Origin: Bryobacteraceae bacterium
GTDB lineage: Bacteria > Acidobacteriota > Terriglobia > Bryobacterales > Bryobacteraceae
Assembly: GCA_029975915.1 (NCBI GenBank)
Contig: JARKOC010000279.1
Location: 1 to 30,133 of the forward strand
Reading direction: 5' to 3'
DNA length: 30,133 nucleotides
Shown here piece after piece: positions 1,989 to 18,825 of the stretch (the first letter of the stretch is position 1; the number at the start of each line of letters is the position of its first letter). The translations under genes and the position numbers were made by a program. Below the pieces are notes generated by a model, which saw only the letters and a program-made list of their open reading frames with translations, did no database searches and was not told the origin of the DNA.

Positions 1989-2081
1989 GCACCCTAACGA
2001 CTGGCGGAAACTGGCATTACTGGCTTTTCATGTGTTTGGCGTGTGCGCCAGACGAGAAAAGTCTCTGTCAGAGGAGGAAAC

Positions 2082-2765
2082 ATGAAAATCGTTCGCTATG
2101 TGCCCGTGCTATTCGTGCTGTTCTGCGTCTCCATGATCGGCGGGCCGCTTGTGGTCACTCAGGAGGGCGTCGTTGGCCAGACCACCGTCTACAAGGCATC
2201 CTTTGCAGGCTCTGGCGCCGCATCGGTCGGCACCGTCGTGATCAGCGACTCCAATAGCCAGACCGGCGGTTCCCCAGGCGTCTTCTCGGGGTTCGACCTG
2301 GACTTCCTGTGGCTCGACGTCGACGGTGTCTTCGCCACTGCTGGTGACCGTATCTACGCCGCCTCATACGCCTTCACTACAGGCACAATTCGCCCCACGG
2401 CCGACCCGAACTACCAGCCCACCATCGGACGCCCGGGCCCGACCTTCGGCTCGTCAGCCGCCGACACAATCGATCCCGCGCTCTCCACCCTGGGTGTTCT
2501 CGATGGCGCCTACCCGGCGGCCTTCAACACCGATAACGTTTTCGGCTGGCTCACCTTCGGCGATGGTGGCGTCCTGAAGGCCACGTTCTTTCCGTCGGTC
2601 GCCTTGAACGCCAATTCAGCCCTATTCTTCGGCGAAGTCGGCACGGGCCTCGGCGAGCAGCTTCGCGCCAATGTCGAACTCGTTCCAGAGCCCGGCTCCT
2701 GGGCCGCACTCCTGCTTGGTCTCGGCGGCTTGTCTTATGCCGTCTCCCGGCGCCGTCGCGCCTAA
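2082..2765 (+). CDS. PEP-CTERM sorting domain-containing protein
   Basis: Predicted exported surface or matrix protein of 227 residues. The N-terminus is a signal peptide (MKIVRYVPVLFVLFCVSMIGG). The C-terminus has the full PEP-CTERM tripartite signal: VPEPGSWAALL, a hydrophobic helix, then RRRRA. In characterised systems this signal is recognised and cleaved by an exosortase (EpsH family). The body, rich in G, T, S and F, matches no family I recognise. The start is fixed by GAGGAGG at 2071-2077, five bases ahead of the ATG; a longer in-frame reading from 2043 would place the signal peptide internally. A GTACT-type motif lies 106 bp upstream. The 3' end of the gene is nearly identical in DNA to that of the next gene, although the two ectodomains are unrelated. 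Confidence 0.85.
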   Translation: MKIVRYVPVLFVLFCVSMIGGPLVVTQEGVVGQTTVYKASFAGSGAASVGTVVISDSNSQTGGSPGVFSGFDLDFLWLDVDGVFATAGDRIYAASYAFTTGTIRPTADPNYQPTIGRPGPTFGSSAADTIDPALSTLGVLDGAYPAAFNTDNVFGWLTFGDGGVLKATFFPSVALNANSALFFGEVGTGLGEQLRANVELVPEPGSWAALLLGLGGLSYAVSRRRRA

Positions 2766-2929: not shown

Positions 2930-3556
2930 ATGAAATCACTGACTCTGGTCACCGTGATTGCTTTAATGCTGGCTTCTGTCGCCAGCGCCGGCGTGGTGGA
3001 TTTTGAATCCACGTCTACCGGAAACGCGATTCTGTCGGGGTCTACAGACGTTCAGGGCCTGACGTTTACATCCAGCCACTATCACATCCCCGACAGCGTA
3101 GTAGGCTCCTACGGCGGCTCTGTCGCCCTAGTGAAGTATCTTGCTCTCGACGCACCTGGCCTGGGCTTCCCTGTCACGGTCACGCAAACCGGCGGAGGCG
3201 CTTTCTCGGTTCTCAGCCTTGACGCGAGTCAGATGTGGGGAGACAGCGGCGCTGCAGCGGCTGCTGGGTATAACAATGCTGACTTCCTGCACCTGGTCGG
3301 CAACATCAGCGGTGGCGGGACGGTCACAACCGATTTGCCACTGGGGTTCGGCTTTGCCAACTTCGTCCTGGCCGGCTTCAACAATCTGGACTCCATGGTG
3401 ATCTCCGGGTTCGTCGTCGGCGGCACGGATAACGCAAGCTGGGCCGTTGACAATATCGAATACGCATCCGCAGTCCCCGAACCCGGCTCCTGGGCCGCGC
3501 TCCTGCTCGGCCTCGGCAGCCTCTCCTACGCCGTCTCCCGGCGCCGGAAAGCCTAA
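2930..3556 (+). CDS. PEP-CTERM sorting domain-containing protein
   Basis: Predicted exported protein of 208 residues, with signal peptide MKSLTLVTVIALMLASVASA and a likely cleavage after ASA. The C-terminus reads VPEPGSWAALLLGLGSLSYA followed by VSRRRKA, a complete PEP-CTERM signal. The ectodomain (VVDFESTSTGNAILSG..., later AVDNIEYA) resembles the beta-rich secreted proteins often annotated as 'PEP-CTERM protein, DUF-type' with a terminal D-N-I/V motif; I assign no function. GGAGG precedes the ATG by about ten bases. It lies 164 bp after the previous PEP-CTERM gene and may share its promoter, since no GTACT motif is seen in the gap. A strong intrinsic terminator follows. Confidence 0.85.
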   Translation: MKSLTLVTVIALMLASVASAGVVDFESTSTGNAILSGSTDVQGLTFTSSHYHIPDSVVGSYGGSVALVKYLALDAPGLGFPVTVTQTGGGAFSVLSLDASQMWGDSGAAAAAGYNNADFLHLVGNISGGGTVTTDLPLGFGFANFVLAGFNNLDSMVISGFVVGGTDNASWAVDNIEYASAVPEPGSWAALLLGLGSLSYAVSRRRKA

Positions 3557-4433: not shown

Positions 4434-5429
4434 CTAGATCCCGCTCCGCTCCACGGCGTTATCCAGAAACAACGACCCCTCCCGGATGTACTGCCGCAGC
4501 GTCGTCACGCTCTTGTGGCCCGTCTGGTTCATGATCGCCCGTTCGCTGGCGCCGCCCCGGGCCGCCGACGTTGCAAAACCGGCCCTCAGGCTATGTCCTG
4601 CATAGCCTTCCGCGTCAATACCCGCCCTGAGCAGACTGCGCTGGACGATGCGGGCGACCGCTCTGTCAGATAGTCTTTTCTCCTCGACATCCCCGTGGCG
4701 GTTCACCGGCCGGAAGACCGGCCCCTCCTCCCATCCACCGTGCTCCCGCCACTCTGCCAGAGCACGCACGGGACAACTCGCCCGCCTTGGCCGAGTAGGG
4801 ATCCCAATCCGCCTGCCCTCGCCCTCCTGGTCCGTCTTTGCCCTTCGCAGCCGGATAACAACCCCCTGTTCGACAAATTCACAGTCCTCCCAGTCCAAAC
4901 CAACCAACTCTGACCGCCGGAAGGCGCCCGCGAACCCAACCAGAAGCAAAGCCCGGTCCCTCAACCCCAACGCGCCATCAGGCAGGTGCCGCAATACTGT
5001 TTCAAGTTGATCGGCCATCAGCGGCCGCCGCCGGTCGGGCATCGTGCCTTGCGCCCGCCTCAACCCCGCCATCAGAGCCCGCACCTCGGCCGTCTCCGAT
5101 GGTGAAGGACAGCCCGCCCATCTATGAGCTACCGAGATTGCAGAAAGCCGGCGTGTGAGAGTTGAAACTTTCCGCTGGCCCGCCTGCTCCGTCAGGAAAC
5201 AGACAACCGCTTCCACTGGAGCCGGCAGCGCCGCAAATCCCCTCGACACACACCATTGTTCGAACTGCCGCCAGTCGCCGTTGTATGCGCGTAACGTATT
5301 TGGCGCCTTGGCCAGCCGCATGTACGCCTGGCTGGCTTCGGTCAGCCGGCCGAGTTCCCCGCCCCGATCTGGATCGTCCAGCAGGTCCACGAGATCATTG
5401 TACGCGCTCTGGTGTCCGATATGCTTCAT
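4434..5429 (-). CDS. Tyrosine recombinase / phage-type integrase
   Basis: Site-specific recombinase of 331 residues. An N-terminal SAM-like core-binding domain (about 30-125; MRLAKAPNTLRAYNGDWRQFEQW) precedes a C-terminal catalytic domain (about 135-320). The catalytic set is visible: R171 in GAFRRSEL, K198 in RRAKTD, H279 and R282 in HSLRAGF, H305 in TGHKS, and the nucleophile Y314 in LRQYI. It therefore looks intact and active. The start at 5429 lies in the loop of an 8-bp inverted repeat and has no Shine-Dalgarno sequence, so expression may be controlled or leaderless; an internal ATG at residue 37 is the alternative. It is transcribed divergently from the unknown/ScpA pair. No tRNA gene or attachment repeat could be identified beside it. 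Confidence 0.9.
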   Translation of the reverse strand: MKHIGHQSAYNDLVDLLDDPDRGGELGRLTEASQAYMRLAKAPNTLRAYNGDWRQFEQWCVSRGFAALPAPVEAVVCFLTEQAGQRKVSTLTRRLSAISVAHRWAGCPSPSETAEVRALMAGLRRAQGTMPDRRRPLMADQLETVLRHLPDGALGLRDRALLLVGFAGAFRRSELVGLDWEDCEFVEQGVVIRLRRAKTDQEGEGRRIGIPTRPRRASCPVRALAEWREHGGWEEGPVFRPVNRHGDVEEKRLSDRAVARIVQRSLLRAGIDAEGYAGHSLRAGFATSAARGGASERAIMNQTGHKSVTTLRQYIREGSLFLDNAVERSGI

Positions 5430-5501: not shown

Positions 5502-6002
5502 ATGCCTGCCTTCCCCCAGTGGTATCAGCGCATTCCGGCGGCCCTCGCCACACTTCGCCGGGTCGATACTCCCGACTTCGACCGCAGCGCGATCGAGGGG
5601 TTGTTGAAAGTGAGCCGCCGCGATGCTGTCCGCATCCTTCACCGCTTTGGGGCCACCCGCGTCGGTAACTCGCTCAAGATCGCCCGCACTGACCTCATCC
5701 TTTGCCTGGAAGCGCTTCAGCGGGATGATTCTTTCCGGCTCGAGCGTCAGCGGCGCCGCTCGGTTGCCCAGGAAGTGATCCAGGCTGAACAGGATGCCGT
5801 CGCGCGAAGCATCGTGATCCATGAACCGCCGCCTGTCCCGCGCCCCGCCCTGGACGCGCTACCAGACACAATCGAGCTGCGTGCCGGACTCCTTTCAGTC
5901 CGCCATGCCGGCCCGGAAGACCTTCTCCGCCAGCTTCTGCTTCTCGCCCGAACCATCTGCCACGATCACTCGGCTTTTATGAGCCGGACAACGCCTTCGT
6001 AA
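5502..6002 (+). CDS. Unknown protein with an N-terminal HTH-like segment, partner of the ScpA-like gene
   Basis: I do not recognise a named family. The 166-residue protein has a segment at about 25-65 (FDRSAIEGLLKVSRRDAVRILHRFGATRVGNSLKIAR) that reads like a DNA-binding helix-turn-helix: a helix, a short turn, then a basic helix. A charged helical middle follows (about 70-105), then a proline-rich linker and a final helical stretch (LELRAGLLSV-type to the end) that could be a protein-interaction part. It ends 7 bp before the ScpA-like gene and on the same strand, so the two are almost certainly co-transcribed. By position it might replace ScpB, which is not seen here, but I see no sequence similarity to ScpB. 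The function is unassigned. Confidence 0.7.
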   Translation: MPAFPQWYQRIPAALATLRRVDTPDFDRSAIEGLLKVSRRDAVRILHRFGATRVGNSLKIARTDLILCLEALQRDDSFRLERQRRRSVAQEVIQAEQDAVARSIVIHEPPPVPRPALDALPDTIELRAGLLSVRHAGPEDLLRQLLLLARTICHDHSAFMSRTTPS

Positions 6003-6009
6003 GCCGCCC

Positions 6010-6735
6010 ATGCCTCTGCCAGCCCTTCACATCTCGGCTCCTGGCTTTGAGGGTTCAATCGAAGAACTCATCCACGCCGTCCGGACGGGCGAGCTCGCGC
6101 TTGCCAGCTTGCCCATGGCGGCCATTTCGGAGTCTGTGCTCGCTTGGGTTATGGCGCTTCGGGGCCGCGAATTGATCGACGGGGCTGACACGCTCGACAT
6201 TCTGGCTTCGCTGATCCGCCTCAAATCCCGAGCCCTCCTGCCTGAAGACGAAGTTGCCTGGGATGAACAGGTTAACCACGGCTTCACCCGTCGCAAACGG
6301 TCATTCATCGACGATCTTCGCGCTCTGCAGTATGCAGTTGACCAGATGCGTGACCTCTGGGCGGCTTCCCTGCCCCGCGAGGAGTTGCTCCAGCCTGCCG
6401 CCGAAGTCGAAGCCCCGGCCGCTCCAGCCACGCTCCATGACCTGATCCGCGCCCTTGAGGACGCGCTTCGCTTAACCCTTCAAGCCGCACAACCCCTAGA
6501 AATTGAACCGGAAGAGTATCCTTTTGATCGTTTGGCCGCCATCATCCACGATCACGTCCAGACAGAAACAGCGCTCGGCCCCCTGCTCGCCCGCCATCCG
6601 CACATCGCCGCCGGCTTGTTTCTTGCAGCGCTTGAATTGAGCCAGTTGGGTCAACTGGACCTGGATCAGGAGGAGCCTTTCGGCGCCATTCGAATCCAAA
6701 ACGCCGGCCAAGCTCAAAGGCCGTGCGAAGCGTAG
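6010..6735 (+). CDS. scpA-like: ScpA-like kleisin (segregation and condensation protein A family)
   Basis: Kleisin subunit homolog; in the Smc-ScpAB condensin the kleisin bridges the two Smc heads. The N-terminus aligns by eye with ScpA: FEGSIEELIHAVRTGELALASLPMAAI matches the FxGPLDLLLxLI...IPI pattern, and TLDILASLIRLKSRALLP at about 60-77 is the second hallmark. The C-terminus (HIAAGLFLAALELSQLGQL...QEEPFGAI) matches the winged-helix end of ScpA that docks on the Smc cap. At 241 residues it has full ScpA length. The odd point is context: it sits in an integrase/ParA island behind a small unknown gene, without ScpB or Smc. It could be an accessory paralog serving the island or the cell's own ScpA. 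The last 22 bp overlap the convergent gene. Confidence 0.8.
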   Translation: MPLPALHISAPGFEGSIEELIHAVRTGELALASLPMAAISESVLAWVMALRGRELIDGADTLDILASLIRLKSRALLPEDEVAWDEQVNHGFTRRKRSFIDDLRALQYAVDQMRDLWAASLPREELLQPAAEVEAPAAPATLHDLIRALEDALRLTLQAAQPLEIEPEEYPFDRLAAIIHDHVQTETALGPLLARHPHIAAGLFLAALELSQLGQLDLDQEEPFGAIRIQNAGQAQRPCEA

Positions 6736-8234
6736 CGGCCCAACCGTTTCATGCGTTCGCGGGCGACTTCCCTCCCCTGATTGTCGAGTTCCACATCCTC
6801 GGCGATCGCTTTCAGGTCGTAGCCGAACTCGGTCCGGTGCCGCTCGCTTACGCGCTCGCGGAGCGCGCGCAGTCGTTCATAACTCTGGTCCTGTCCCACT
6901 TGCGCCGCCGCCAGCTCCTCGTACCGGCGGACCTCGTCCTGTTCCCTCTGGCGCCTCTCGGCTTCGGCCGCTCGGTAATCGAGAAATGGCTGCCCGGAAA
7001 AGCACTCCGGAAGAGCGATCCTCAACACGCCCAACGGATTGCGCAAGTTGGACGCTCTGGCGAAGATGCCCGTCTTGACCCGGCAAAAATGCAGGATCTC
7101 ATCGTCTGACGCCGTGCTCCCGGTTGTCGCGCGGGCACGGGCACGGCAGTCATGGACCATCGCAGCCAATAACGCCTGGTCTGCATCCGCTCCCAAATTG
7201 ACGCGAATCATTCGCGCTAGAGCCCCAAAAAGTCCAGCTTCACTATCCTGATCAACACCCAGAGGTTCAGATGTTTCACCACTGGGCTTTATTTCAAACC
7301 CCTTGGGCGATGATCCAACACCCATGGGCTCGTCCAAAACATCAAGCTTCGCGTCCTCAACGAGGCTGGTATTCGCAGTGAGGCCAACGGACACAGGCCG
7401 CGCGTAGAAGACGCCTTTGCCGGTCTTTACCACCCACAGACGATTTCGCTTTTGCTGCTGCGCCAGGATCTCGCTGTAACTCCAAACCCGGTAACGCGTC
7501 GGCAGATTGCGCCGCACATCCGCCTCGCGTTCAACCGCGATGAAACCCTTGTCAATCAACCGCGGCAGCAACTCACGGACCGTCTTGATATTGATGCGAG
7601 CCTCGTTTGCGATGCGCTGAAGGCTGAAGTCGGCGAAACGGAAGGCATCCTTGCTCTGGTTCTTTACACCCCAAAGCAAGTCGTAGACTTTCTCCTCGAC
7701 ATGTGAAAGGGCGTCCTGAGCCAAACGAATCCGCCGCACACGGGATGCCGGGAACAGAGCCCCGATCTGCTCGGCAAGAAACATCGCCTGGCTCGACGCT
7801 GGAACCGACACCGGCACAACTTCCCCACTGGGTTTTACGCCAACACCACCATACTCTGGCCTAAAAGCCACTGGCTTTACGTCATCCCCCATGGGTGTTG
7901 CCACAACACCCTTGGAGGGATCAGTAGGCCGGCCCGCTGGCGCCTGGGTCTGGCTGGTCGCTTCCTGAACCCACAAGGGAATATGCGGCGAAGCGGGCGG
8001 TGGTTCCCCATCTATTCCTGTTTCGGCTTGGGGTTTTGGAACAAGACCTATGGGTTTTGACTCAACACTCCTAGGTGATGGCTCGGAGCCTGGCGCAACC
8101 TGAGACTCCTCGACCTCCTCGGCGCTCAATTGCAGGAAGCCCAGGTTGACCTTGGTAATCGGGTTGTTGATGATGTCAGCGACCGCGGCCTCGAGATCCT
8201 CGTTAGGCGGTCGCTGCTTCCTCTTGGCGGCCAT
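6714..8234 (-). CDS. Plasmid-type DNA-binding protein with central winged helix and heptad P-x-G repeats
   Basis: A 506-residue protein without an exact family match. Residues about 165-255 look like a winged-helix DNA-binding domain: EEKVYDLLWGVKN, then FSLQRIANEARINIKTVRELLPRLIDKGFIAVE, then a basic wing. This is reminiscent of plasmid replication or partition proteins. The C-terminus (about 420-490) is a charged probable coiled coil. Two regions flanking the winged helix (about 52-72 plus 105-138, and 302-328) repeat a seven-residue P-x-G motif, for example EPMGVGS-SPKGFEI-KPSGETS-EPLGVDQ. These are encoded by a 21-bp DNA palindrome array. Its start overlaps the parA end by 32 bp, so translation is probably coupled. 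It may act as the ParB-like partner or replication initiator of the module; that is inference. Confidence 0.7.
   Translation of the reverse strand: MAAKRKQRPPNEDLEAAVADIINNPITKVNLGFLQLSAEEVEESQVAPGSEPSPRSVESKPIGLVPKPQAETGIDGEPPPASPHIPLWVQEATSQTQAPAGRPTDPSKGVVATPMGDDVKPVAFRPEYGGVGVKPSGEVVPVSVPASSQAMFLAEQIGALFPASRVRRIRLAQDALSHVEEKVYDLLWGVKNQSKDAFRFADFSLQRIANEARINIKTVRELLPRLIDKGFIAVEREADVRRNLPTRYRVWSYSEILAQQQKRNRLWVVKTGKGVFYARPVSVGLTANTSLVEDAKLDVLDEPMGVGSSPKGFEIKPSGETSEPLGVDQDSEAGLFGALARMIRVNLGADADQALLAAMVHDCRARARATTGSTASDDEILHFCRVKTGIFARASNLRNPLGVLRIALPECFSGQPFLDYRAAEAERRQREQDEVRRYEELAAAQVGQDQSYERLRALRERVSERHRTEFGYDLKAIAEDVELDNQGREVARERMKRLGRYASHGL
7253..7333. repeat. 21-bp phased palindrome array, block A (4 sites)
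   Basis: Four degenerate copies of CAACACCCATGGGTGTTG start at 7253, 7274, 7295 and 7316, exactly 21 bp apart. By my count they match the idealised 18-mer at about 13, 10, 13 and 13 positions. They are in the codons for residues about 302-328 of the 506-residue protein. Confidence 0.75.
7820..7921. repeat. 21-bp phased palindrome array, block B (5 sites)
   Basis: Five sites start at 7820, 7841, 7862, 7883 and 7904, again exactly 21 bp apart. The site at 7883-7900 matches the idealised 18-mer at 16 of 18 positions; the one at 7862 is itself a good palindrome (AAAGCCA/TGGCTTT) but diverged. They encode residues about 105-138. Confidence 0.75.
8021..8080. repeat. 21-bp phased palindrome array, block C (3 sites)
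   Basis: Sites start at 8021, 8042 and 8063, 21 bp apart, with about 9, 15 and 14 matches to the idealised 18-mer. They encode residues about 52-71. The block is out of phase with block B (117 bp from 7904 to 8021). Confidence 0.65.
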
Positions 8235-9021
8235 TCTGGGTTTCCACGGGCTCGCTTGAGCCGTTTATGCCATAGATGGCCAGCAGCCGGTTGGAAACCT
8301 CACGGTAGTCGTCGAGGCACTTGGCTCTGGCATCCACGTCGGCGATGAATTGCCGCAGACGGATGGACTTTGCAACGGTGGCATCCGTCCGGATCGAGGG
8401 AAGTACCTCGACGCTGTAGTTTTGGCTAATGAGTTCAATCATCTTCGTGACCATCTCGGTATTTTGGTACCGGTGGTCAACGATGGTGGGGAGTAGGCCG
8501 ACGCAGCGGCATTTCTTCTTGAGTTGGACCTCTAACTGGTAGGAAGTATTAAAGAAAGCTGTGGCTCCGGTGACGCTGAGGGCGTCCATGGAGATCGGCA
8601 CGAGGTAATCGGTGGTATAGACCAGGGCGCAGATCTGCATGAGGCTGAGAGACGGCCCAACGTCGATCAAAACGGCATCGTAGTGATCTTCTATGGGTTC
8701 GAAGATGTTCTCGAAGATCCTCTCGCGTCCGATCGTCCCAGTGGCACGTTGTTCCGCCTCAAGGGTGTCCCGATTACTGCAGAGCACGTCCAGATTCGGC
8801 ACAGGCTGCACCACACAGTCCACCAGGCGCCGCTTATTCCACAAGAAGTCATTCAAATACAGCTCTGGACGGATTCGGAGAACACTGCCAATCGAACCCT
8901 GCGGATCGGCATCGACCAAAAGTGTTCGCAAGCCCCGTTCTGCCCAAAGACGCGCCAATGTGATGGCTGTAGTCGTCTTCCCGACACCACCTCGCTGATT
9001 CCCGATCGTCAAGCGAATCAC
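8203..9021 (-). CDS. parA: ParA-family partition ATPase
   Basis: Cytoplasmic ATPase of the ParA/Soj/MinD group that moves DNA carrying a centromere bound by a partner protein. It has 272 residues, as expected. The deviant Walker A is NQRGGVGKTTT at 8-18, with catalytic K15; the Walker A' is LLVDADPQGS around 36-45, and the Walker B is AVLIDVGPS around 115-123. The signature lysine of the KGGxGKT motif is replaced by arginine (R10, codon CGA). There is no long N-terminal HTH, so it resembles the small type Ib or chromosomal ParAs; the adjacent HTH gene may supply DNA binding. It overlaps the HTH gene by 4 bp (ATGA) and the 506-residue gene by 32 bp, forming a tightly coupled operon. Confidence 0.9.
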   Translation of the reverse strand: MIRLTIGNQRGGVGKTTTAITLARLWAERGLRTLLVDADPQGSIGSVLRIRPELYLNDFLWNKRRLVDCVVQPVPNLDVLCSNRDTLEAEQRATGTIGRERIFENIFEPIEDHYDAVLIDVGPSLSLMQICALVYTTDYLVPISMDALSVTGATAFFNTSYQLEVQLKKKCRCVGLLPTIVDHRYQNTEMVTKMIELISQNYSVEVLPSIRTDATVAKSIRLRQFIADVDARAKCLDDYREVSNRLLAIYGINGSSEPVETQNGRQEEAATA

Positions 9022-9209
9022 TTCGAAAGCTCCTCTTGAACCTGCTCTACGTCGTACCTTCTCCAGACCCGATAGTTGTTCGACGGATTGCGGCCCGGCT
9101 CCGGGATCCGGCCGGCACCGAGCATCCGATACAGCGTCTTTGTTGTAACTCCAAGAATCCTCGCCACTTGCGCCGTCGTCAAAGTGTCATCGGGCCGTTT
9201 TCTACGCAT
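9018..9209 (-). CDS. Small HTH protein of the excisionase/MerR type
   Basis: DNA-binding protein of 63 residues if started at the ATG (9209), or 66 from an upstream TTG (9218). The core LTTAQVARILGVTTKTLYRMLGAGRIPEP, followed by YRVWRRYDVEQVQEEL, is the HTH_17/excisionase fold: a helix-turn-helix, a wing, then a short helix. Such proteins act as recombination directionality factors or as repressors of their own operon. It overlaps parA by four bases and is the first gene of a three-gene operon (HTH, parA, 506-residue protein). It may bind the palindromes or inverted repeats in the upstream 770 bp. Neither start has a clear Shine-Dalgarno sequence, so the N-terminus is uncertain. Confidence 0.8.
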   Translation of the reverse strand: MRRKRPDDTLTTAQVARILGVTTKTLYRMLGAGRIPEPGRNPSNNYRVWRRYDVEQVQEELSK

Positions 9210-9451: not shown

Positions 9452-9469
9452 TAGGACCCATGGGTGTTG
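9452..9469. repeat. Array-type palindrome in non-coding DNA (copy 1)
   Basis: TAGGACCCATGGGTGTTG matches the idealised 18-mer at 15 of 18 positions. It lies outside any gene, which argues that the repeat family is selected as DNA and not only as a peptide motif. Weaker related sequences follow at about 9476-9510. Confidence 0.7.
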
Positions 9470-9557: not shown

Positions 9558-9575
9558 TAACACCCATGGGTGATG
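9558..9575. repeat. Array-type palindrome in non-coding DNA (copy 2)
   Basis: TAACACCCATGGGTGATG matches the idealised 18-mer at 16 of 18 positions, 106 bp from copy 1 and close to the right 16-bp inverted repeat. Confidence 0.7.
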
Positions 9576-9986: not shown

Positions 9987-12200
9987 GTGAAAGTGAGTGT
10001 CATTATACTTCCGGTCCTCGTCGTGGTTGGATCGCTTGGGCTGTCCGGGCAACCGAGGAGCTCCACAGATGGGCTGAACCAAATAAGAGAGCTCAATGGA
10101 AGTCTGCTTCGCTTGCATGAGGAGAACCGGGCGCAGCGGACTGAGGGACGTGTGAGCGACGAGCGGCGAGCCCATCAGTTGATCAGGGAGCGCGGCGACA
10201 CCTTGTTGAGGTTGATGCGAGAAGATCCAGCTGAGGCCCTAAAGGTAGCGCTGCCCCAAGAGATTCTGACGGAAATAAGAAACGAGTTTGGCGACTCGTC
10301 AGCCTGGCTGGAAGAACTGGGGCAGTGGTCAGGGGAAGTTGAAGTTGAGGTTGTCGACGACTTTGACAACGAAACGTCATACACAAACGTGCGACTCAAA
10401 AGTGGCGGGGAAGAAAGTGTGCTGCGCTTTGCTGATGAATCCGCAGTCCCGGTTCAATGCACACAAGGCGTCACCATTGAAGGGATGCGTTTGCGTGGGG
10501 AGATCGCCGTCAGAGCCGTAGAGGCCGCCGCAACTTCGAGTTGTACGCCGGTGGGCGCGCAAAAGACCCTTGTGATCCTGGCGAAGTTTCCCGGCTACGC
10601 AGACACCTTCACAACGGCCCACGCGCAGAACCTGGTTTTTGCCGACGGAACGGTAAAATCTCTGAACACCTACTGGAAAGAGAACTCCGCGGGCTTGACG
10701 TCGGCCGCTGGAACCGTGGTTGGCTGGCTGACCCTGGACAGGGTCTACACATGCGATGAGTATGCGACGATGCGCCTGGCGGCGATCAAGGCCGCCGATC
10801 CGTTGGTTGATCTGACGCAATTCACACGCATCCTGATTTACTTTCCGAATCCGGGCGGCTGTTCGTTTAGCGGGATCAGCACAGTCGGATGTACCAGCGT
10901 CAGTTCCAGTGATGGATACTCTCTCGCGTCGCTTTCAATGGTGGTTTCAAACTATGCCACCACCATTGATCAAGGAGTGCAGATCACCGCTCACGAGGCC
11001 GGCCACGGCCTCGGGCTGCGGCATTCCGCCTCGCGGGACTTTGGAGCGGAGCCGCTGGGCGCGTTAGGTGTTGCCGGCACTCTGAGCACATACGGGGACA
11101 AGTTCTCGAGCATGGGTTACTGGAATCTTGGACACTATGCGGCGCCACAGAAACTCTCGCTCGGGTGGTGGGTGAATAACGATGAAGTCCGGACCATCAC
11201 CTCCAACGGAACCTATACGATCGCGCCTTCCTCGCTAACCGCCACCAACCCACAAGGGCTGAAGATACAGCGAGGCGCGAACAGCGGCGCCTGGATCTGG
11301 CTTGAGTATCGCCAACCCGTGGGTCTGTTTGACAAGGCTCTGGCATCGCAGGTCTTCACGGGTGTTCTGGTTCACTACGAGGACAGCACGAACGGCGGGT
11401 TAACGCATCTGCTGGACTATAGTCCGGGCAGCACGAATTGGAACGGGCCGGCGCTGGCGGCGGGGTTGGTGTGGACTGATCCGTACACGAATCTGACAAT
11501 CACGGTATTGAGCGCCACCGCCTCGGGGGCGACGGTGAACATCAGCTATGGCAGCGAGCCTTGCTCGCCGCAGGCGCCCAGCCTGACCGTGTCTCCGTCG
11601 ACGGCCAGCGTCACTGCCGGACAGAGTGTGACTTATTCGGTGACGCTGAAGAACAACGACACGGCCGCTTGCTCCAGCAGCACCTTCAATCTGCAACCCG
11701 TGGTCCCAGCGGGTTGGACCGGCTCCATTTCACCAACGGCCGCAACAATGGCTCCAGGCGAAACGGCGTCATTCGGGTTGACCGTCACCGCTCCGGAACT
11801 TGCGGTCACTGGCACCTACGCGGTGGGGGCGAATGCGGCGGATTCGACGCGGACGGCGACTGCAAGCGCCTCGATCTCAGTCACCCAGCCAGTGAAGACA
11901 GTCACCGCGCCGTTGGCCCTTGCACTCAAAGTTGACAACACGGTGGCCACCGCAAAAACGAAGTTGACTTTCACGGCCACCGCGACCCGCAACGGGGTAC
12001 CGCAGAACAAGTTGCCGGTGGTGATCACGATCAAGAATCCGAACGGAACCACCACCAGCTACAGCATCATCACTGGTCCAACTGGCGCCGCAACGCTGCG
12101 GACGTCGTTGAAGAGTGTAGGTGTCTACACTGCGGCGGCCACAGCAAAGGATGGGGAGTCGGTGGTGGAGAGTCCCGCCGTGAGCGTGACCATCAAGTGA
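9987..12200 (+). CDS. Secreted zinc metalloprotease, M11/gametolysin-like, with Ig-like C-terminal domains
   Basis: Predicted exported protease of 737 residues. It starts with GTG at 9987, preceded by GGAGG at 9971-9975. A signal peptide spans about 1-21. A charged propeptide-like region extends to about 180. The catalytic motif HEAGHGLGLRH at 336-346 is the metzincin HExxHxxGxxH form (zinc ligands H336, H340, H346), and SSMGY near 374-378 gives the Met-turn; YGDKFSSMG is typical of the M11 group. Residues about 530-630 resemble a NEW3-type beta domain (VSPSTASVTAGQSVTYSVTLKNND), and the last 100 residues form another Ig-like domain. It has no PEP-CTERM anchor, so it is probably released or loosely surface-bound. 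It stands alone, followed by a shared terminator. The substrate is unknown. Confidence 0.8.
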   Translation: MKVSVIILPVLVVVGSLGLSGQPRSSTDGLNQIRELNGSLLRLHEENRAQRTEGRVSDERRAHQLIRERGDTLLRLMREDPAEALKVALPQEILTEIRNEFGDSSAWLEELGQWSGEVEVEVVDDFDNETSYTNVRLKSGGEESVLRFADESAVPVQCTQGVTIEGMRLRGEIAVRAVEAAATSSCTPVGAQKTLVILAKFPGYADTFTTAHAQNLVFADGTVKSLNTYWKENSAGLTSAAGTVVGWLTLDRVYTCDEYATMRLAAIKAADPLVDLTQFTRILIYFPNPGGCSFSGISTVGCTSVSSSDGYSLASLSMVVSNYATTIDQGVQITAHEAGHGLGLRHSASRDFGAEPLGALGVAGTLSTYGDKFSSMGYWNLGHYAAPQKLSLGWWVNNDEVRTITSNGTYTIAPSSLTATNPQGLKIQRGANSGAWIWLEYRQPVGLFDKALASQVFTGVLVHYEDSTNGGLTHLLDYSPGSTNWNGPALAAGLVWTDPYTNLTITVLSATASGATVNISYGSEPCSPQAPSLTVSPSTASVTAGQSVTYSVTLKNNDTAACSSSTFNLQPVVPAGWTGSISPTAATMAPGETASFGLTVTAPELAVTGTYAVGANAADSTRTATASASISVTQPVKTVTAPLALALKVDNTVATAKTKLTFTATATRNGVPQNKLPVVITIKNPNGTTTSYSIITGPTGAATLRTSLKSVGVYTAAATAKDGESVVESPAVSVTIK

Positions 12201-12245
12201 CGGGACGAGCCGCAGAAGCGTAAGCGCTTTGCGGTATCGACAAGA

Positions 12246-12281
12246 AAAGGACCTCAGCACCAGGAGTGCCTGAGGTCCTTT
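12246..12281. terminator. Bidirectional terminator between convergent genes
   Basis: AAAGGACCTCAG at 12246-12257 pairs perfectly with CTGAGGTCCTTT at 12270-12281. The A-run on one side and T-run on the other allow use in both directions, for the protease gene and the convergent PEP-CTERM gene. Confidence 0.85.
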
Positions 12282-12326
12282 ACCGCTTACATCTTCGAAC
12301 TAAGGATGCCGGCGAGAGTGCTTGCT

Positions 12327-13037
12327 CTAACTCATGCGGCGGCGATAGATCGCCAAACCGACGCCCGCCAAACCAAGCGCGAGAGCGGCGAAGGAGCCGG
12401 GCTCCGGAACCGGCGGACCAGGATCCTCCGGAGGTCCGTTCAGGAAGCTTTCGCTGCCTTTACTGTCGTAGGCAATGACGTGAATGCCAACTTTGATGTC
12501 GCCAGAGGTGAGAGAAGCCAGGACAGCCTGATAGGTATCGGGTGTGACCGAGAAGAGAATCCCGAGTTGCTCGCCGGCGCCGATGCCATTCGTGGGAGCA
12601 GGCGAGTCAGCACTATAGCTGTCGTCGGCTGTAAATGAATAGGCATTGCCGCCGGGGAGATTTCCGGGGTCCGGCGTGCACGGACCCTGATTGCATTTCA
12701 CGTCCTGGTAAAACAAGACCCCGGTTCCGTTGTAGATGCCGAGATTCAGAACGCCACCGATACCGTCAAAGAAGACCTGCTCAATGACTGCCTTCTCAGG
12801 ACCAGTGTTGTAGAGCCGGAACAGAACATCATTTGCGCCGATGGTGGCCGGGCCGACTGTACTTGGATTGGTCCCCCAAATAATGTCCAGGAAGAGCTGA
12901 GCCTCTCCGATTGCACAATCTCCAGCGTTGTTATTTGTGATGCAGGTGAACCCTGCGGTCTGGTAGCCGGCGGTTGCGACTCCGGCGAGGGCGAGGAAAA
13001 GGACAAAACCGCCTAAAAGTGTACACTTACGGGCCAT
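12327..13037 (-). CDS. PEP-CTERM sorting domain-containing protein (tandem paralog 1)
   Basis: Predicted exported protein of 236 residues, with signal peptide MARKCTLLGGFVLFLALAGVATAG and C-terminal signal VPEPGSFAALALGLAGVGLA followed by YRRRMS. The ectodomain is closely related along its whole length to the next upstream gene (shared blocks CITNNxAGDCAIGEAQLF, VEQVFFxGIGGVLNLGIYNG, DDSYSADSPAPTNGIG, GSESFLNGPP), so the two are a tandem duplication. Two pairs of cysteines near the N-terminus and middle could form disulphides. Function unknown. GGAGG lies about eight bases before the ATG. A -24/-12-like element at 13088-13103 and repeated TCTA(A)GGC motifs lie upstream. Confidence 0.85.
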   Translation of the reverse strand: MARKCTLLGGFVLFLALAGVATAGYQTAGFTCITNNNAGDCAIGEAQLFLDIIWGTNPSTVGPATIGANDVLFRLYNTGPEKAVIEQVFFDGIGGVLNLGIYNGTGVLFYQDVKCNQGPCTPDPGNLPGGNAYSFTADDSYSADSPAPTNGIGAGEQLGILFSVTPDTYQAVLASLTSGDIKVGIHVIAYDSKGSESFLNGPPEDPGPPVPEPGSFAALALGLAGVGLAIYRRRMS

Positions 13038-13349: not shown

Positions 13350-14072
13350 TTAGCTCAACCGGCGGCGGCGGATGGCGTAACCGACGCCAAACATGCCGAG
13401 AGCCAGAGCGGCGAACGAACCAGGCTCGGGAACCGCCGGCGGTGGGGGGCCGGGATCCTCCAGCGGAGGCCCATTCAGGAAGCTTTCGCTCCCCCCGCTT
13501 TGGTATGCGATAACGTGCATGCCCACCCTGACGCTGCCATCACCGAGAGCGGTGAGAACGTCTGCATAGGTGTCGGGAGCGATAGAGAAGAGAATCCCGA
13601 GTTGCTCGCCGGTGCCGATTCCGTTCGTGGGGGCAGGCGAATCAGCGCTATAACTGTCGCTCGCGACGAAGGAGTAGCTGTTCCCGCCGGGGAGGTTGCC
13701 TGGGTTTGGCGAACAGCCATCCTTCTTGGTGCATTTCACGTCTTGGTCAAACAACACGCCAGTTCCGTTGTAGATGCCCAGGTTGAGGACTCCGCCAATA
13801 CCCTCGAAGAAGACCTGCTCGACCACAGCCGCTGCCGGTCCAGTGTTCCGGAAGACGAAAAAGATCTCGTTGGGACCGATTGTGGCGGGGCCAAAGCCGG
13901 TGTCATTTGGATTCCAGATGACATCCATGAACAACTGCGCCTCTCCGATGGCGCAGTCGCCGGCCGAGTTGTTGGTGATGCAATCGAACCCGTGGGTTTG
14001 AATGCCCGCCGGCGCAATGCCGGTGAGGGCAATGGTAAGGAAGCTGAGCAGATACAGCTTACGCAAGGTCAT
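13350..14072 (-). CDS. PEP-CTERM sorting domain-containing protein (tandem paralog 2)
   Basis: Predicted exported protein of 240 residues, paralogous to the gene at 12327-13037. The signal peptide is MTLRKLYLLSFLTIALTGIAPAG; the C-terminal signal is VPEPGSFAALALGMFGVGYA followed by RRRRLS. Differences from its twin are concentrated in the signal peptide, around residues 35-60, and in the proline-rich linker before the PEP motif, which is longer here (EDPGPPPPAVPEPG). GGAGGAG precedes the ATG by about ten bases. It has its own terminator, a TTGCA-type -12 element and a GTACTAGTA motif upstream, so it is probably regulated with the other PEP-CTERM genes. It is divergent from the DUF218 gene at 14312. 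Function unknown. Confidence 0.85.
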   Translation of the reverse strand: MTLRKLYLLSFLTIALTGIAPAGIQTHGFDCITNNSAGDCAIGEAQLFMDVIWNPNDTGFGPATIGPNEIFFVFRNTGPAAAVVEQVFFEGIGGVLNLGIYNGTGVLFDQDVKCTKKDGCSPNPGNLPGGNSYSFVASDSYSADSPAPTNGIGTGEQLGILFSIAPDTYADVLTALGDGSVRVGMHVIAYQSGGSESFLNGPPLEDPGPPPPAVPEPGSFAALALGMFGVGYAIRRRRLS

Positions 14073-14938: not shown

Positions 14939-15820
14939 TCAGTTTTCACCGTTCAGTTTGAGGCTCGAGTAGTTGTACTTGTAACTGCCGTAGATGCGTT
15001 GCAGATCGCTGGCCTCGGCGTAATTCGCGACGACACCAACAATATTCCGCTGTAGGGTTTCCTTCAGCGCGGTCTGGAGGCTATCAATGGAGGTCTGCTC
15101 AAGCCGGACGACGAGCAGCGCTCCGTCGCACGCGGTTGACAGGAGATTGGCGTCGGCGGCCACGAGCAGGGGAGGCGTGTCGAGAATCACCCACTCGAAG
15201 ATGTCGGGCAGACTTTGCATGAGCCTGTTGAAAGCCGGGCGGTTGAGCAATTCCAGCGGGTTGTCCACTTCGCTGCCGGCGGGAAGGAAGTAGAGTTCGG
15301 TCCCCTCGACGCGGCGCACGACGTCGTGGAGGTCGGCCTGGCCCTGGAGAAACTCGGTGATGCCGGGACCGCGGTCGATGCCGAAGGCTTTGTGCAGGAC
15401 GGGTTTTCGAAGATCGAAGTCGGCAAGCAGGGTGGGGTTGCGGTCCAGTTGAGATTGAACGAAGGCGAGGTTAGACGAGGTGAAGGATTTTCCCTCTCCG
15501 GGGCCTGGGGAAGTGACGGCGAGGGTTTTGAGCTTCTTTGTCCGCCGCATGTGATTGAGGCGGGTTCGCAGTTGGCGGAACTCCTCGATGGGCGGCTGGA
15601 AGTCGCCCGGGGTCCCCATTAATGGGAACTCAAAGAACTCGGGCTTTGGAATAACGCTGATGGCTTCAAGGAGCGAAGGGTCAACAGCCTGGCCGGCACC
15701 TTCGCCAACTGGAGTCGCGACATCGACCGCCGCTGAGGGTGGGGCCGGGTTCGAAAGCGCCTCAGTCTCCTCGAAGACCTCAATTTGCAGACGTTTCAGG
15801 GCATCGTAGATACGGCTCAA
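14939..15820 (-). CDS. Bacterial tyrosine kinase (BY-kinase), CpsD/CapB type
   Basis: Cytoplasmic autokinase that works with the neighbouring Wzz protein to control polysaccharide chain length and export. Walker A is SPGPGEGKS (about 104-112), Walker A' is LLADFDLRKP (131-140) and Walker B is VILDTPP (211-217). The C-terminal tyrosine cluster IYGSYKYNYSS is the expected autophosphorylation tail. I prefer the TTG at 15820: it gives MSRIYDALKR, a common start in this family, it forms a 4-bp TTGA overlap with the wzz stop, and GGGAGG lies seven bases upstream. A GTG at 15835 would add five residues. Unlike proteobacterial Wzc, kinase and Wzz are separate proteins here, as in Firmicutes. A proline/alanine-rich linker (about 25-50) precedes the kinase domain. 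Confidence 0.88.
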   Translation of the reverse strand: MSRIYDALKRLQIEVFEETEALSNPAPPSAAVDVATPVGEGAGQAVDPSLLEAISVIPKPEFFEFPLMGTPGDFQPPIEEFRQLRTRLNHMRRTKKLKTLAVTSPGPGEGKSFTSSNLAFVQSQLDRNPTLLADFDLRKPVLHKAFGIDRGPGITEFLQGQADLHDVVRRVEGTELYFLPAGSEVDNPLELLNRPAFNRLMQSLPDIFEWVILDTPPLLVAADANLLSTACDGALLVVRLEQTSIDSLQTALKETLQRNIVGVVANYAEASDLQRIYGSYKYNYSSLKLNGEN

Positions 15821-17550
15821 ATCCAGGCCTCCCACGGAAGAGTCGTCCCATTTGGACGCAGGTATAGATGGTAGTACAGAGCGCCAGCCATGAGGATGCA
15901 GCCGAGCGCGACGGCTGCGCTCCAGCGCAGGCCGGCCGCAATGCGGTTCTTCCTGATGACGTTGCGGTCAACCAGTTTGGGAATGCTGGCGAGGATGCGG
16001 AGTCCGGAGAAGGTTTCGATGTCCTTCACGCGTCGCAGTTCGCGGGCATTGATCTCATAGACCAAGGTCAGGCCGATACCCAGAGCGAGTCCTGCGAAAA
16101 GCCCGGCAAAAATGACCAGCGGCCGCTTGGGGAAATTGGGATCAAGCGGAGCAATGGCAGGTTCAAGCATTTCGAGAGCTTCGCCTTGGCGCCGGCTCTC
16201 AAGATTTGATGCGAGCAGCGACTGTTGATACTTCACACTAAGCTCGTTGTAGTTTTTCTGTGCGATGTCGCGGTCCTGGAGAAGTTGGCTGTAACGCTGC
16301 TGGATGGTGGGACTCAAGGTCAAGTGAGCCTGGAGAGCTTTAATCTTGCCGTTGGTGTCGCGAAGTTGCTTGGTGACCTCTTCCATCTCCAATTCTCTGG
16401 CCTGGATGGCGGTCTGAATGAGTTTGGCGGTGTCACGCAATTTGACGAGTTCGGGATTCGGAGGGGCAGTGCTTGGAACCGGATTTGCGGCGGCCTGTTT
16501 GGCGGCGTCAGCAATCCTGGCCTGCTCGGCTTCCCACTGCTCACGCAGTTGAGTTTGTTCGGCTCGTTTTTTTGCCAAGGCGTTTTCGAGAGAGATGATG
16601 TCGGGGTGATCGGGCCTATAGCGGACAGAGAAGGACAGCAACGTTGTCTCGAGACCGGAGATCTCTTTCTCGAGGGCTGCGAGCCGGGCATTGCGAACCA
16701 CGGCGGAGGTCTGCTGGGTAGGCGTCCTGGCCACAGCGGATGCGGCTTCCGTGGTCCGAATGCGGTCCTCAACGATGCTGAGCTGCGATTCGAGTTGCAT
16801 CTTGGCTTGGGTGAGCCGGCTCATTGATGCGTTCAGGTTTTGCACTCCTGCTTCCAGGGCGCTGAGACGGCCGACCATCGCCGAGCTTTGTTCCGGCAGT
16901 TCGGGAGAGTTTGCGATGCGCATCGCGGCAACCTGGGAGTCGATTTCATCCAGGTGGCGCTTGGCGGCCTCGGCCTCTTCCTTTAGAAATTCCGTCGTTG
17001 TGACGGACTGGACCGAGCGGAGGCGGATGTTTTCGTCCACGAAGCGGCTGATGAACTGCTGGCAGACCTGAATGGCGGTTTGGCGTTCGGGGTAGGTGAA
17101 AGCGACCGTGAAGGCCATGCCGCCAGAGCCGCGTTGTGGGCCCCTGGTGACACCGCGGACAAGTTGGATGTTGATGTCCTTACGCATCAACTCGACGGTG
17201 TCCTCCAAGGTTTGGCTCTGAAGGCGGTCCTGATAGAGCTTGTGTTCTTTGATGATGTTGATCAGGTTCTCGCGCCGGGCGATGGTCTGATACATCAGGT
17301 TAATGCGCTGGTTGACTTCGTCGACGATGTTGGTGGGAACGAGGCGTTCGGGCACCTGTTGAGGCAAGAACCGGAGAGACCCAACCGCAATGTAGCGCTG
17401 AGGCAGAATGTAAGCCGCCACCACGCCCAAGACAAGCCCGGCGAAGGTGAGTGCGAGCCAGAGGCCCTTGCGGCGCTTGAGGATATACAGGTAGTCGAGG
17501 ATGTCCAGCGTGCGGCGGGCCGGTCCTGGATTTGTTTGGGTGGTCACCAC
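15817..17550 (-). CDS. Wzz-family chain-length determinant / polysaccharide co-polymerase
   Basis: Inner-membrane co-polymerase of about 577 residues from the GTG at 17550. A cytoplasmic start (TLDILDYLYILKRRKGLW) leads to the first membrane segment (about 27-48), followed by a long periplasmic part with coiled coils (about 165-230, 280-320, 365-450). The proline-rich motif PLDPNFPKRPL then precedes the second membrane segment (about 480-502). A third hydrophobic stretch near the C-terminus (WSAAVALGCILMAGALYYHLYL) is unusual and would place the last residues outside. GGAGA lies seven bases before the GTG. A longer reading from 17682 adds a cysteine- and histidine-rich leader before the Wzz domain and is unlikely. 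It is coupled to the BY-kinase gene by a 4-bp overlap. Confidence 0.85.
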   Translation of the reverse strand: MVTTQTNPGPARRTLDILDYLYILKRRKGLWLALTFAGLVLGVVAAYILPQRYIAVGSLRFLPQQVPERLVPTNIVDEVNQRINLMYQTIARRENLINIIKEHKLYQDRLQSQTLEDTVELMRKDINIQLVRGVTRGPQRGSGGMAFTVAFTYPERQTAIQVCQQFISRFVDENIRLRSVQSVTTTEFLKEEAEAAKRHLDEIDSQVAAMRIANSPELPEQSSAMVGRLSALEAGVQNLNASMSRLTQAKMQLESQLSIVEDRIRTTEAASAVARTPTQQTSAVVRNARLAALEKEISGLETTLLSFSVRYRPDHPDIISLENALAKKRAEQTQLREQWEAEQARIADAAKQAAANPVPSTAPPNPELVKLRDTAKLIQTAIQARELEMEEVTKQLRDTNGKIKALQAHLTLSPTIQQRYSQLLQDRDIAQKNYNELSVKYQQSLLASNLESRRQGEALEMLEPAIAPLDPNFPKRPLVIFAGLFAGLALGIGLTLVYEINARELRRVKDIETFSGLRILASIPKLVDRNVIRKNRIAAGLRWSAAVALGCILMAGALYYHLYLRPNGTTLPWEAWI

Positions 17551-17848
17551 AGCAGTTCTCCGAGTGTGGACATGAACGTTACAGCATGGACCGCGATGAA
17601 CCCGCGGCCATACGAGCTTCCGTCTATCTTCAATGTTACAGGCAAGTGTTGCTTGGGAAGTGCAAAGAAGTGCGCACTGCAACAGCTACGGGTAATCACG
17701 TAGCGGAATAGCGGCATTCACAACTATTAGCTGTCCCCCTCCGAATCTCTGTTCTCATTCTAGAGCAATTCAGGAATGACCAGCCTCCCCTTCACCGCCC
17801 GGCGGCGGGGAGCAGGGAAGAAGCTAAAGCACACTCTGCGAAGGCAAG

Positions 17849-18673
17849 CTAGGAGAGACGGCGCCGGCGGCGGATAGCGAGACCGATGCCACCCAAACCA
17901 AACAACAACGCCGCCACCTGACCCGGTTCGGGAACGGGATGCAAAACGATGAAGGTCTGCTTGGACTGATTGAAGTCGTTCAGGGAATATGAAGCGGCTG
18001 AGGAACTCTTGATCGCTGCGCCGCTGACGATGCTGAACCAGGACCAATTCGTGTTATTGGTGTTGGCGGTCATGTAGGCGACAGCCTGGTTGAACCAATA
18101 GCTGGACTCGTCGGTTTGCGTGTTTAGAATGCCGCCGTTGTAGGCGTTCACCGGGGTCGGAGTCTGATCCTTGGTGTCCATGATCTGCCAGATGGCGGTT
18201 TGAATTGCTTTGTTAACTGCCCATGAGGCTGTCGTTGGATTGCCAGGATCGACGTAGTTGGTCAGAAGCCACGCGGCGGCTTTATACCGGACATCCGGAT
18301 TGACCGTGGACCCGAGGAAAGACGTGGTGAACTGCTTATTGGTGAGGGAGTTGGTGTGATTTTCGAATCGCACGTCATAGGGCCCCACGCCGATGGCTGA
18401 GACATCTTCCTGGAATCCGACGTATGTCGAAGGAACGCTCACATGGTTCTGAGTATCGACACAGAACAACTGAACGAGATCGAACGTGTCGATTCCGGCA
18501 TCCTGAAAGTCGCCGTCGCCATTGCCATCGGTGACGAGCTTCGCCTGGAACATACCGCCATTCAGGACATTCCAGGGGTGGGAGGTAACGTTGACCTGGA
18601 CCACGCCGGCCTGGGCTACCATGACGGCCAGGGCTGTCAGGGCGAAAAGACGAAACGCTTGGTTCAATTTCAT
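17849..18673 (-). CDS. PEP-CTERM sorting domain-containing protein
   Basis: Predicted exported protein of 274 residues. The start is the ATG at 18673, giving signal peptide MKLNQAFRLFALTALAVMVAQAG; a longer frame to 18802 lacks a sensible leader. The C-terminus is VPEPGQVAALLFGLGGIGLA followed by RRRRRLS. The ectodomain has a DGNGDGDFQDAG stretch (about 48-60), possibly calcium binding, and an AAWLLTNY...AVNKAIQTAIWQIMD segment (about 130-165). The latter resembles the helical part of secreted proteins that carry a 'thioester-domain' or Cys-Gln-like fold (QTAIWQ); I would not assign a function. Only a weak AGAAAG precedes the ATG. Two ACCAGTAC repeats 20 bp apart lie upstream. It sits inside the polysaccharide locus, between wzz and the glycosyl-phosphate transferase. 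Confidence 0.82.
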   Translation of the reverse strand: MKLNQAFRLFALTALAVMVAQAGVVQVNVTSHPWNVLNGGMFQAKLVTDGNGDGDFQDAGIDTFDLVQLFCVDTQNHVSVPSTYVGFQEDVSAIGVGPYDVRFENHTNSLTNKQFTTSFLGSTVNPDVRYKAAAWLLTNYVDPGNPTTASWAVNKAIQTAIWQIMDTKDQTPTPVNAYNGGILNTQTDESSYWFNQAVAYMTANTNNTNWSWFSIVSGAAIKSSSAASYSLNDFNQSKQTFIVLHPVPEPGQVAALLFGLGGIGLAIRRRRRLS

Positions 18674-18728
18674 GTCGGTTCTTTCTTGCTTAAAGCGAGT
18701 GTAGAAAGTGGAATTGCAAAAGAAAAGA

Positions 18729-18756
18729 ACCAGTACCACAGGGCTTGTACCAGTAC
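18729..18756. repeat. Two ACCAGTAC direct repeats, 20 bp apart
   Basis: ACCAGTAC at 18729-18736 and 18749-18756. On the minus strand they read GTACTGGT, 57-84 bp before the PEP-CTERM start at 18673. They resemble the GTACTAG/GTACTTG motifs before three other PEP-CTERM genes. Confidence 0.55.
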
Positions 18757-18825
18757 GGATGGACCTGCGGACAATGAGGGGGCAATCAGACACGCCTGAC
18801 AAAGTCGAATCAGTGTATGGAGGAT

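What the first reader, a model, noticed from the sequence alone, without database searches (positions are those of the whole stretch)
7253..8080. Palindrome array at exact 21-bp spacing embedded in a coding sequence of a partition operon
Twelve degenerate copies of CAACACCCATGGGTGTTG occur in three blocks (starts 7253/7274/7295/7316, 7820/7841/7862/7883/7904, 8021/8042/8063). Spacing within each block is exactly 21 bp, about two helical turns, so dimers bound to all sites would face the same side of the DNA. The gene lies in an operon with parA. Known centromeres (parS, parC, omega-type arrays) are helically phased repeats near the par genes, but I do not know of one written into the reading frame of a par-operon gene. 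Inference: a centromere or spreading platform hidden in a gene.
Basis: partly seen in the sequence, partly recalled or inferred. Interest (0 to 1): 0.82.

Follow-up and report, generated by a model that had tools for sequence, protein, structure and literature searches.

The report
Plasmid origin written inside initiator gene
In soil Acidobacteriota, a plasmid-type maintenance gene appears to carry, inside its own protein-coding text, palindromic landing sites for the protein it makes, probably as the starting point of DNA replication, and related genes have different palindromes together with a different DNA-reading domain.

Summary
Eight 18-mers matching the palindrome at 13 or more positions occur in the window, all between 7253 and 9575 (1.4 expected). 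The three 21-bp blocks exceed shuffles, but five of the twelve copies match at only 9-11 of 18 positions. In relatives the sites are DNA signals: synonymous positions are biased towards the palindrome, near-consensus copies occur only on the locus contig in four genomes searched, and 19 genes of the family carry nine palindrome classes in the same kind of linker. Palindrome class follows the winged helix, not the C-terminal domain. The build (winged helix, site-bearing linker, DnaD-like C-terminus) resembles pSK41 Rep and lambda O, whose origins lie inside their own genes. Relatives sit on contigs whose ends overlap, one a conjugative plasmid. Best reading: an initiator with its replication origin inside its own gene, in a ParA operon. 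A centromere role, alone or added, is not excluded. No binding was tested.

The parts
6714..8234 (-). 506-aa protein: basic N-terminus, disordered linker 34-146, winged helix about 150-282, disordered linker 286-332, helical DnaD-like C-terminus about 335-498; proposed initiator
7253..7333 (.). array block 1, four copies at 21 bp, coding residues about 301-328 (second linker)
7820..7921 (.). array block 2, five copies at 21 bp, coding residues about 105-139 (first linker)
8021..8080 (.). array block 3, three copies at 21 bp, coding residues about 52-72 (first linker)
9452..9469 (.). non-coding copy of the palindrome (15/18) upstream of the operon
9558..9575 (.). non-coding copy of the palindrome (16/18) upstream of the operon
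8203..9021 (-). ParA ATPase
   Evidence: PF13614 E 2.7e-35; best NCBIfam match partition_RepA, below its cut-off
9018..9209 (-). 63-aa MerR/excisionase-type HTH protein, first gene of the operon
   Evidence: HTH_17, MerR; relatives in other loci
6010..6735 (+). ScpA-like kleisin, convergent with the 506-aa gene
   Evidence: PF02616 E 1.6e-6; similar gene in L002 and L033
5502..6002 (+). 166-aa protein of unknown family
   Evidence: no Pfam or NCBIfam match; relatives beside the family gene in 8 of the compared loci
4434..5429 (-). XerC/D-like tyrosine recombinase
   Evidence: PF00589, below NCBIfam cut-offs; 50-56% identical genes in L028 and L036

Best explanation
The gene 6714-8234 codes for a plasmid-type replication initiator whose winged helix binds, probably as a dimer, the palindromes written into the DNA of its own gene, where they code for two disordered linkers. 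The array is the replication origin (iterons): bound initiator would help to open the DNA and its DnaD-like C-terminus would recruit helicase or primase. The copies upstream of the operon would let the same protein control its own operon (small HTH, ParA, initiator); ParA serves stable inheritance of the same replicon. Shown: selection at DNA level in relatives; confinement of near-consensus sites to the locus contig in the genomes searched; position in predicted disordered linkers; palindrome class following the winged helix.
For: Synonymous bias: L001 PxG Pro CCC 15/15 vs 10/38 elsewhere, Gly GGT 13/15 vs 2/24; window Pro CCC 6/9 vs 4/25. Class-consensus matches exceed codon shuffles, P<=0.01 in 14 of 15 genes at the third threshold. 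Dyad symmetry per copy above codon shuffles in 13 of 19 genes. AAMACCCATGGGTKTT with <=1 mismatch: 11 sites in four genomes (38.9 Mb), all on the locus contig, reversed control 0. Winged-helix identity >=52% within and <=43% between palindrome classes; C-terminal domain does not separate them. L051 vs L052/L053: ParA 82-83% identical, winged helix 50%, palindromes unrelated. Weak initiator-like matches and DnaD domain as best fold of the C-terminus. Genes L020 and L021, with another DNA-binding part, keep the C-terminal motif and in-gene palindromes, with no ParA found beside L020. End-overlapping contigs G158:C31, G356:C9, G178:C175; G356:C9 has conjugation genes and no known initiator family among 30 of its 45 ORFs scanned. 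GC-skew minimum inside the gene in G158:C31 and G551:C6.
Against: No binding or replication test. GC-skew minimum is more than 2.5 kb away in 7 of 11 contigs; combined P only 0.03. C-terminal DnaD match is below the level the tool calls safe for helical folds, and the C-terminal model alone has no BFVD match at E<=0.001. No RepA_N, RepC or O family at E<=1 in Pfam. The window's own copies are degenerate: consensus-free dyad test P 0.17, generic palindrome count below the null. A tandem pair of sites lies about 7 kb from the gene in G001, which an origin does not need. Some relatives are on contigs with dnaA and parB (G048, G340). ParA is the constant neighbour, as expected of a partition protein.
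Confidence: 0.58

Rival explanations
1. Self-encoded centromere: the protein replaces ParB, the in-gene array is the partition site moved by ParA, and replication is driven by something else.
For: ParA directly upstream in 18 of 21 compared genes; overlapping operon; conserved basic N-terminus before the first linker, which could contact ParA (inference); remote tandem pair in G001; chromosomal-looking copies.
Against: No ParB_N domain; initiator-like weak matches and DnaD-like C-terminus; in-gene sites kept in L020, where no ParA was found; canonical ParB also present, over the cut-off, in 18 of 19 genomes; no known initiator seen on G356:C9 (30 of 45 ORFs).
Confidence: 0.22
2. Operator array only: the palindromes serve transcriptional control, read by the small HTH protein or by the 506-aa protein, without a role in replication or partition.
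For: Copies upstream of the operon in the window and L002; small HTH gene or HTH-like frame before ParA in most loci.
Against: Up to fifteen copies inside a gene (L001) exceed what an operator needs. L051 and L053 share almost the same recognition helix in the small HTH protein but have different palindromes.
Confidence: 0.1
3. Coding repeat only: a tandemly duplicated peptide in a disordered linker, with palindromic DNA as a by-product.
For: In-frame spacing of 6, 7 or 8 codons; linkers vary freely in length; for the window the consensus-free tests are not significant.
Against: Codon-shuffle tests; non-coding copies; unrelated peptides in different classes but each with a dyad axis; restriction to the locus.
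Confidence: 0.04

Closest known systems
pSK41 Rep (RepA_N plasmids of staphylococci)
   Same: Winged-helix N-terminal domain binds Rep boxes located centrally in rep; the stretch coded by the origin is a dispensable linker; C-terminal domain resembles DnaD (PMC5703833, passages).
   Different: No RepA_N match; palindrome arrays in linkers on both sides of the winged helix; operon with ParA and a small HTH; Acidobacteriota.
Phage lambda O protein and ori
   Same: Origin inside gene O; four 18-bp inverted-repeat iterons, each bound by an O dimer; DNA-binding N-terminus and partner-binding C-terminus joined by a flexible linker (PMC6022878, abstract and passages).
   Different: Only weak O-like profile matches; no relative found in viral contigs; more sites, ParA in the operon; no 39-bp AT-rich tract was identified in the gene.
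repABC replicons (RepC, oriV within repC)
   Same: ParA-like gene and an initiator gene with the origin inside it, in one operon (PMC3155836, abstract and passages); the window's ParA is nearest to partition_RepA in NCBIfam, below its cut-off.
   Different: That repC has an A+T-rich region and no iterons; here there is no RepC match, no ParB gene in the operon and an array of palindromes.
Deinococcus secondary replicons cisII/cisMP
   Same: Iteron array beside par genes reported to have both origin and parS-like activity (PMC7671480, abstract and passages).
   Different: The array there is upstream of parAB and bound by ParB; here it is inside the gene.
Bacillus subtilis parS inside spo0J (recalled, from no call; one search found nothing)
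   Same: A palindromic centromere site within a par-operon reading frame.
   Different: Single site and a canonical ParB; here arrays, no ParB fold, class-specific palindromes.

Membership tests
ParABS partition system | ParA-type Walker ATPase | tested here: met
   PF13614 E 2.7e-35 for 8203-9021
ParABS partition system | ParB partner with ParB_N domain encoded next to ParA | tested here: not met
   no such match in the 506-aa protein at E<=1 nor in 18 family members; small HTH protein matches HTH_17/MerR
ParABS partition system | cis site bound by the partner and needed for partition | not testable with these tools
   needs binding and stability assays
RepA_N initiators (pSK41 type) | RepA_N domain by profile | tested here: not met
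   not listed among Pfam matches at E<=1 for 18 members
RepA_N initiators (pSK41 type) | initiator-site array inside the gene, in a linker between winged helix and C-terminal domain | tested here: met
   block 1 lies between winged helix and C-terminus, blocks 2 and 3 before the winged helix; that they are initiator sites is inferred
RepA_N initiators (pSK41 type) | DnaD-like C-terminal domain | tested here: inconclusive
Lambda O-type initiators | O-family profile match | tested here: inconclusive
   PHROGs O-like families, best E 2.4e-4 in 3 of 18 members; one BFVD match named GpO N-terminal at E 8.8e-4
repABC RepC | RepC profile match | tested here: not met
   not listed among Pfam matches at E<=1 for 18 members; one BFVD row is named Replication protein C
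Theta-type plasmid replicon | located on an extrachromosomal element | tested here: inconclusive
   end overlaps of 149, 95 and 57 bp in three contigs, conjugation genes on one; window itself unknown; G048 and G340 copies share a contig with dnaA and parB

The most novel reading that the evidence does not exclude
A replicon family of Acidobacteriota in which one protein is initiator and ParA partner at once, and the array inside its own gene is origin, centromere and operator in one.
Probability: 0.25. Interest if true: 0.82.

Novelty: new variant of a known kind. Interest (0 to 1): 0.62.

Why it matters
If right, it gives a replication and maintenance handle for a phylum abundant in soil, and a natural series of matched pairs of winged helix and palindrome, linked in one gene, from which recognition rules and the evolution of plasmid incompatibility could be read. 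It also shows selection on DNA sites shaping the amino-acid sequence of disordered linkers.

Tried and rejected
Generic palindrome counting against codon shuffles was weak or negative; for the window 1 even 12-bp palindrome (<=1 mismatch) vs 9.7 expected. This blunt test was followed by a consensus test and a per-copy dyad test. In one search six of 19 genes are not significant: window 0.17, L014, L015, L018, L022, L050. In one search the consensus for classes other than A was read from the same genes, so those P values are partly circular; for class A the same consensus occurs in non-coding copies. In some searches I chose the peptide anchors after seeing the repeats. The link of winged helix and palindrome class is not corrected for common descent.

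GC skew was rejected as general evidence. The first look showed a switch only in the window and partly in G158; the test on 11 contigs gives combined P 0.03 with 7 minima more than 2.5 kb away. Linear contigs were treated without detrending there, end-overlapping ones with.

Long BFVD Foldseek rows have low TM scores; the C-terminal model alone had no BFVD match at E<=0.001. Families not listed by VIA-align are not excluded. A search of solved structures by profile found only a chance match. AT-rich tracts: no common one inside the genes was seen.

Rows dropped: L054 (G533) is a BlaI-type false positive; L011 (C-terminal fragment) and L013 (232-aa frame, two copies) were left out; L010 was left out of alignment A2; L020 and L021 out; one search was run before L050-L053 were fetched. 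Tallies: 14 of 200 genomes of the order and 6 of 396 of the phylum have a match, the latter including G001 itself and the false positive. No relative in viral contigs or in PLSDB plasmids at E 1e-5. The ten paper searches listed nothing whose title or abstract describes this family; that is the only basis for calling it undescribed. Papers opened were seen as abstract and passages only: PMC6022878, PMC7145576, PMC3155836, PMC5703833, PMC7671480.

Full report
The array. Matches to CAACACCCATGGGTGTTG of 13 or more of 18 occur 8 times in the window, all between 7253 and 9575; 1.4 are expected from shuffles. All twelve lie in one frame of the gene 6714-8234(-): 21 bp is 7 codons, and ACCCATGGGT codes for xPMGx. 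Two further good copies lie in non-coding DNA upstream of the operon, at 9452 and 9558.

The operon. Leftwards from 9209: a 63-aa MerR/excisionase-type HTH protein, a ParA ATPase and the 506-aa protein, each overlapping the next; convergent to it a 166-aa protein of unknown family and a ScpA-like kleisin, then a XerC/D-like recombinase. AlphaFold2 gives a confident winged helix (about 150-282) and helical C-terminus (about 335-498) and pLDDT below 50 at 1-11, 34-146 and 286-332. The blocks code for residues about 52-72, 105-139 and 301-328, that is, for the last two of these stretches.

Relatives. A protein search lists 84 proteins, the window's own included; an alignment of 29 keeps PxG repeats in both linkers of full-length members. 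DNA came from Bryobacterales and other Acidobacteriota genomes. Matches are patchy: 14 of 200 genomes of the order, 6 of 396 of the phylum, including G001 again and one BlaI-type false positive. ParA lies directly upstream in 18 of the 21 family genes compared, window included; the three others are L020, L021 (gene begins at the contig end) and the fragment L011. Within class A the ParA proteins are 79-83% identical to the window's.

Selection at DNA level. In L001 the Pro codon of PxG is CCC in 15 of 15 against 10 of 38 elsewhere in the gene, and Gly is GGT in 13 of 15 against 2 of 24; in the window Pro is CCC in 6 of 9 against 4 of 25. Matches to the class consensus exceed codon-shuffled versions of the same gene with P<=0.01 in 14 of 15 genes at the third of four thresholds; the exception is L015, P 0.09. 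A consensus-free test of dyad symmetry per copy reaches P<=0.05 in 13 of 19 genes (Fisher 8e-17); the window does not (P 0.17). A cruder count of all palindromes was weak, and for even 12-mers in the window it lay below the null.

Confinement to the locus. AAMACCCATGGGTKTT with up to one mismatch occurs 11 times in four genomes (G001, G002, G003, G158; 38.9 Mb), each time on the contig of this gene; the reversed control occurs 0 times. In G001 five of seven are in the gene and two, 21 bp apart, lie about 7 kb away. The shorter core ACCCATGGGT also occurs elsewhere: on the locus contig 8 of 11 in G001, 2 of 3 in G002, 3 of 6 in G003. GTTTCATCCCCWGGGGATGAAAC with up to three mismatches occurs 4 times in G402, all in the gene, and once in G551, in its gene; G356 and G340, of other classes, have none.

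Different palindromes, same place. By inspection and stacking, 19 genes fall into nine palindrome classes: ACCCATGGGT (window, L001, L002, L003, L010); CACCCACSGTGGGTG (L012, L014, L015, L018, L022); ACCCACWGTGGGT (L016, close to the previous one); ACAGGNCCTGT (L017); AGTGCACT with variants (L019); TTGGTAGTCTGTACAGACTACCAA (L020, L021); GTGGAC-N5-GTCCAC (L050); an 18-bp repeat around CTACCTGTAAG, the least clear dyad (L051); GTTTCATCCCCWGGGGATGAAAC (L052, L053). The fragment L013 may hold a tenth, seen in two copies. The coded peptides differ (TPMGV, TPTVGV, TGPVT, SAPE, LVVCTDYQ, PGDET), yet each stack has a best dyad axis 3.1 or more standard deviations above the other axes. Spacings are mostly 21, 18 or 24 bp within blocks.

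Reader and site change together. Among 16 genes, pairs of the same class have winged helices at least 52% identical and pairs of different class at most 43%; C-terminal domains overlap widely between the two groups. This is not corrected for descent. L051 against L052/L053 is a natural contrast: ParA 82-83% identical, winged helix 50%, palindromes unrelated; L052 and L053 share winged helix (87%) and palindrome. The small HTH protein has almost the same recognition helix in L051 and L053, and so is an unlikely reader. L020 and L021 have another N-terminal half and another palindrome, with the same C-terminal motif. That the winged helix binds the palindromes is inferred, not shown.

Where it lives. 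G158:C31 (116,678 bp), G356:C9 (55,408 bp) and G178:C175 (112,642 bp) have exact end overlaps of 149, 95 and 57 bp, suggesting circles; ten other whole contigs and three tested by their ends have none. On G356:C9, 30 of 45 ORFs were scanned: TrwC relaxase, TrwB, VirB8, TrbI, a T2SSE-type and a TraG-type ATPase, SSB, a RepB-type primase, a far-off protein with ParB_N and HTH_ParB, and no known initiator family; it looks like a conjugative plasmid. In G048 and G340 the match shares a contig with dnaA and a canonical parB, so some copies are chromosomal, perhaps integrated. ParB_N over the cut-off exists in 18 of 19 genomes tested. No tRNA was found in the window or on the plasmid-like contigs scanned (one tRNA in L037 of G048). 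The skew minimum lies inside the gene in G158:C31 and G551:C6, 114 bp away in G001 and 1.1 kb away in the window, and more than 2.5 kb away in the other seven of 11 contigs; combined P 0.03.

Conclusion. The most economical account is an initiator with an origin inside its own gene, in a ParA operon of Acidobacteriota plasmids and related elements. A centromere, or a double role of one array, remains open; only experiments decide.

Noticed in passing
L028/L029 (G158:C31, about 15-24.5 kb): Two complete-looking ParA modules of different palindrome class (B and A) lie about 5 kb apart on one 116.7-kb contig with overlapping ends; the class-A gene there is only 290 codons and lacks the C-terminal domain.
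   Followed up: partly
L051, L061-L063 (G356:C9): A 55-kb contig with overlapping ends carries conjugation genes, ArdC, an MmeI-like enzyme, an ImpB/UmuC-type polymerase and a protein of the broad PF00144 family.
   Followed up: partly
window 5502-6735: A ScpA-like kleisin and a 166-aa protein of unknown family lie convergent to the initiator gene; the 166-aa protein recurs beside the family gene in 8 compared loci, ScpA in two. No SMC gene was seen among the window proteins scanned.
   Followed up: partly
L025 924-961 (G001:C262 20924-20961): A tandem pair of near-perfect class-A palindromes, 21 bp apart, sits at the 3' end of a nucleotide-sugar dehydratase-like gene, about 7 kb from the initiator gene.
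   Followed up: partly
L040 about 10887-12341; L041 1-1744: Family members L020/L021 have a cysteine-rich N-terminus and another DNA-binding part, a perfect 24-bp in-gene palindrome, and in L040 no ParA beside them.
   Followed up: partly
window 14939-17682: A second ParA-type ATPase beside a Wzz/GNVR protein, followed by polysaccharide genes up to about 24 kb: most likely exopolysaccharide export, not partition.
   Followed up: no
window 2043-2765, 2930-3556, 12327-13037, 13350-14072, 17849-18802: Five proteins with a PEP-CTERM sorting motif lie on both sides of the module.
   Followed up: no
   Followed up: no
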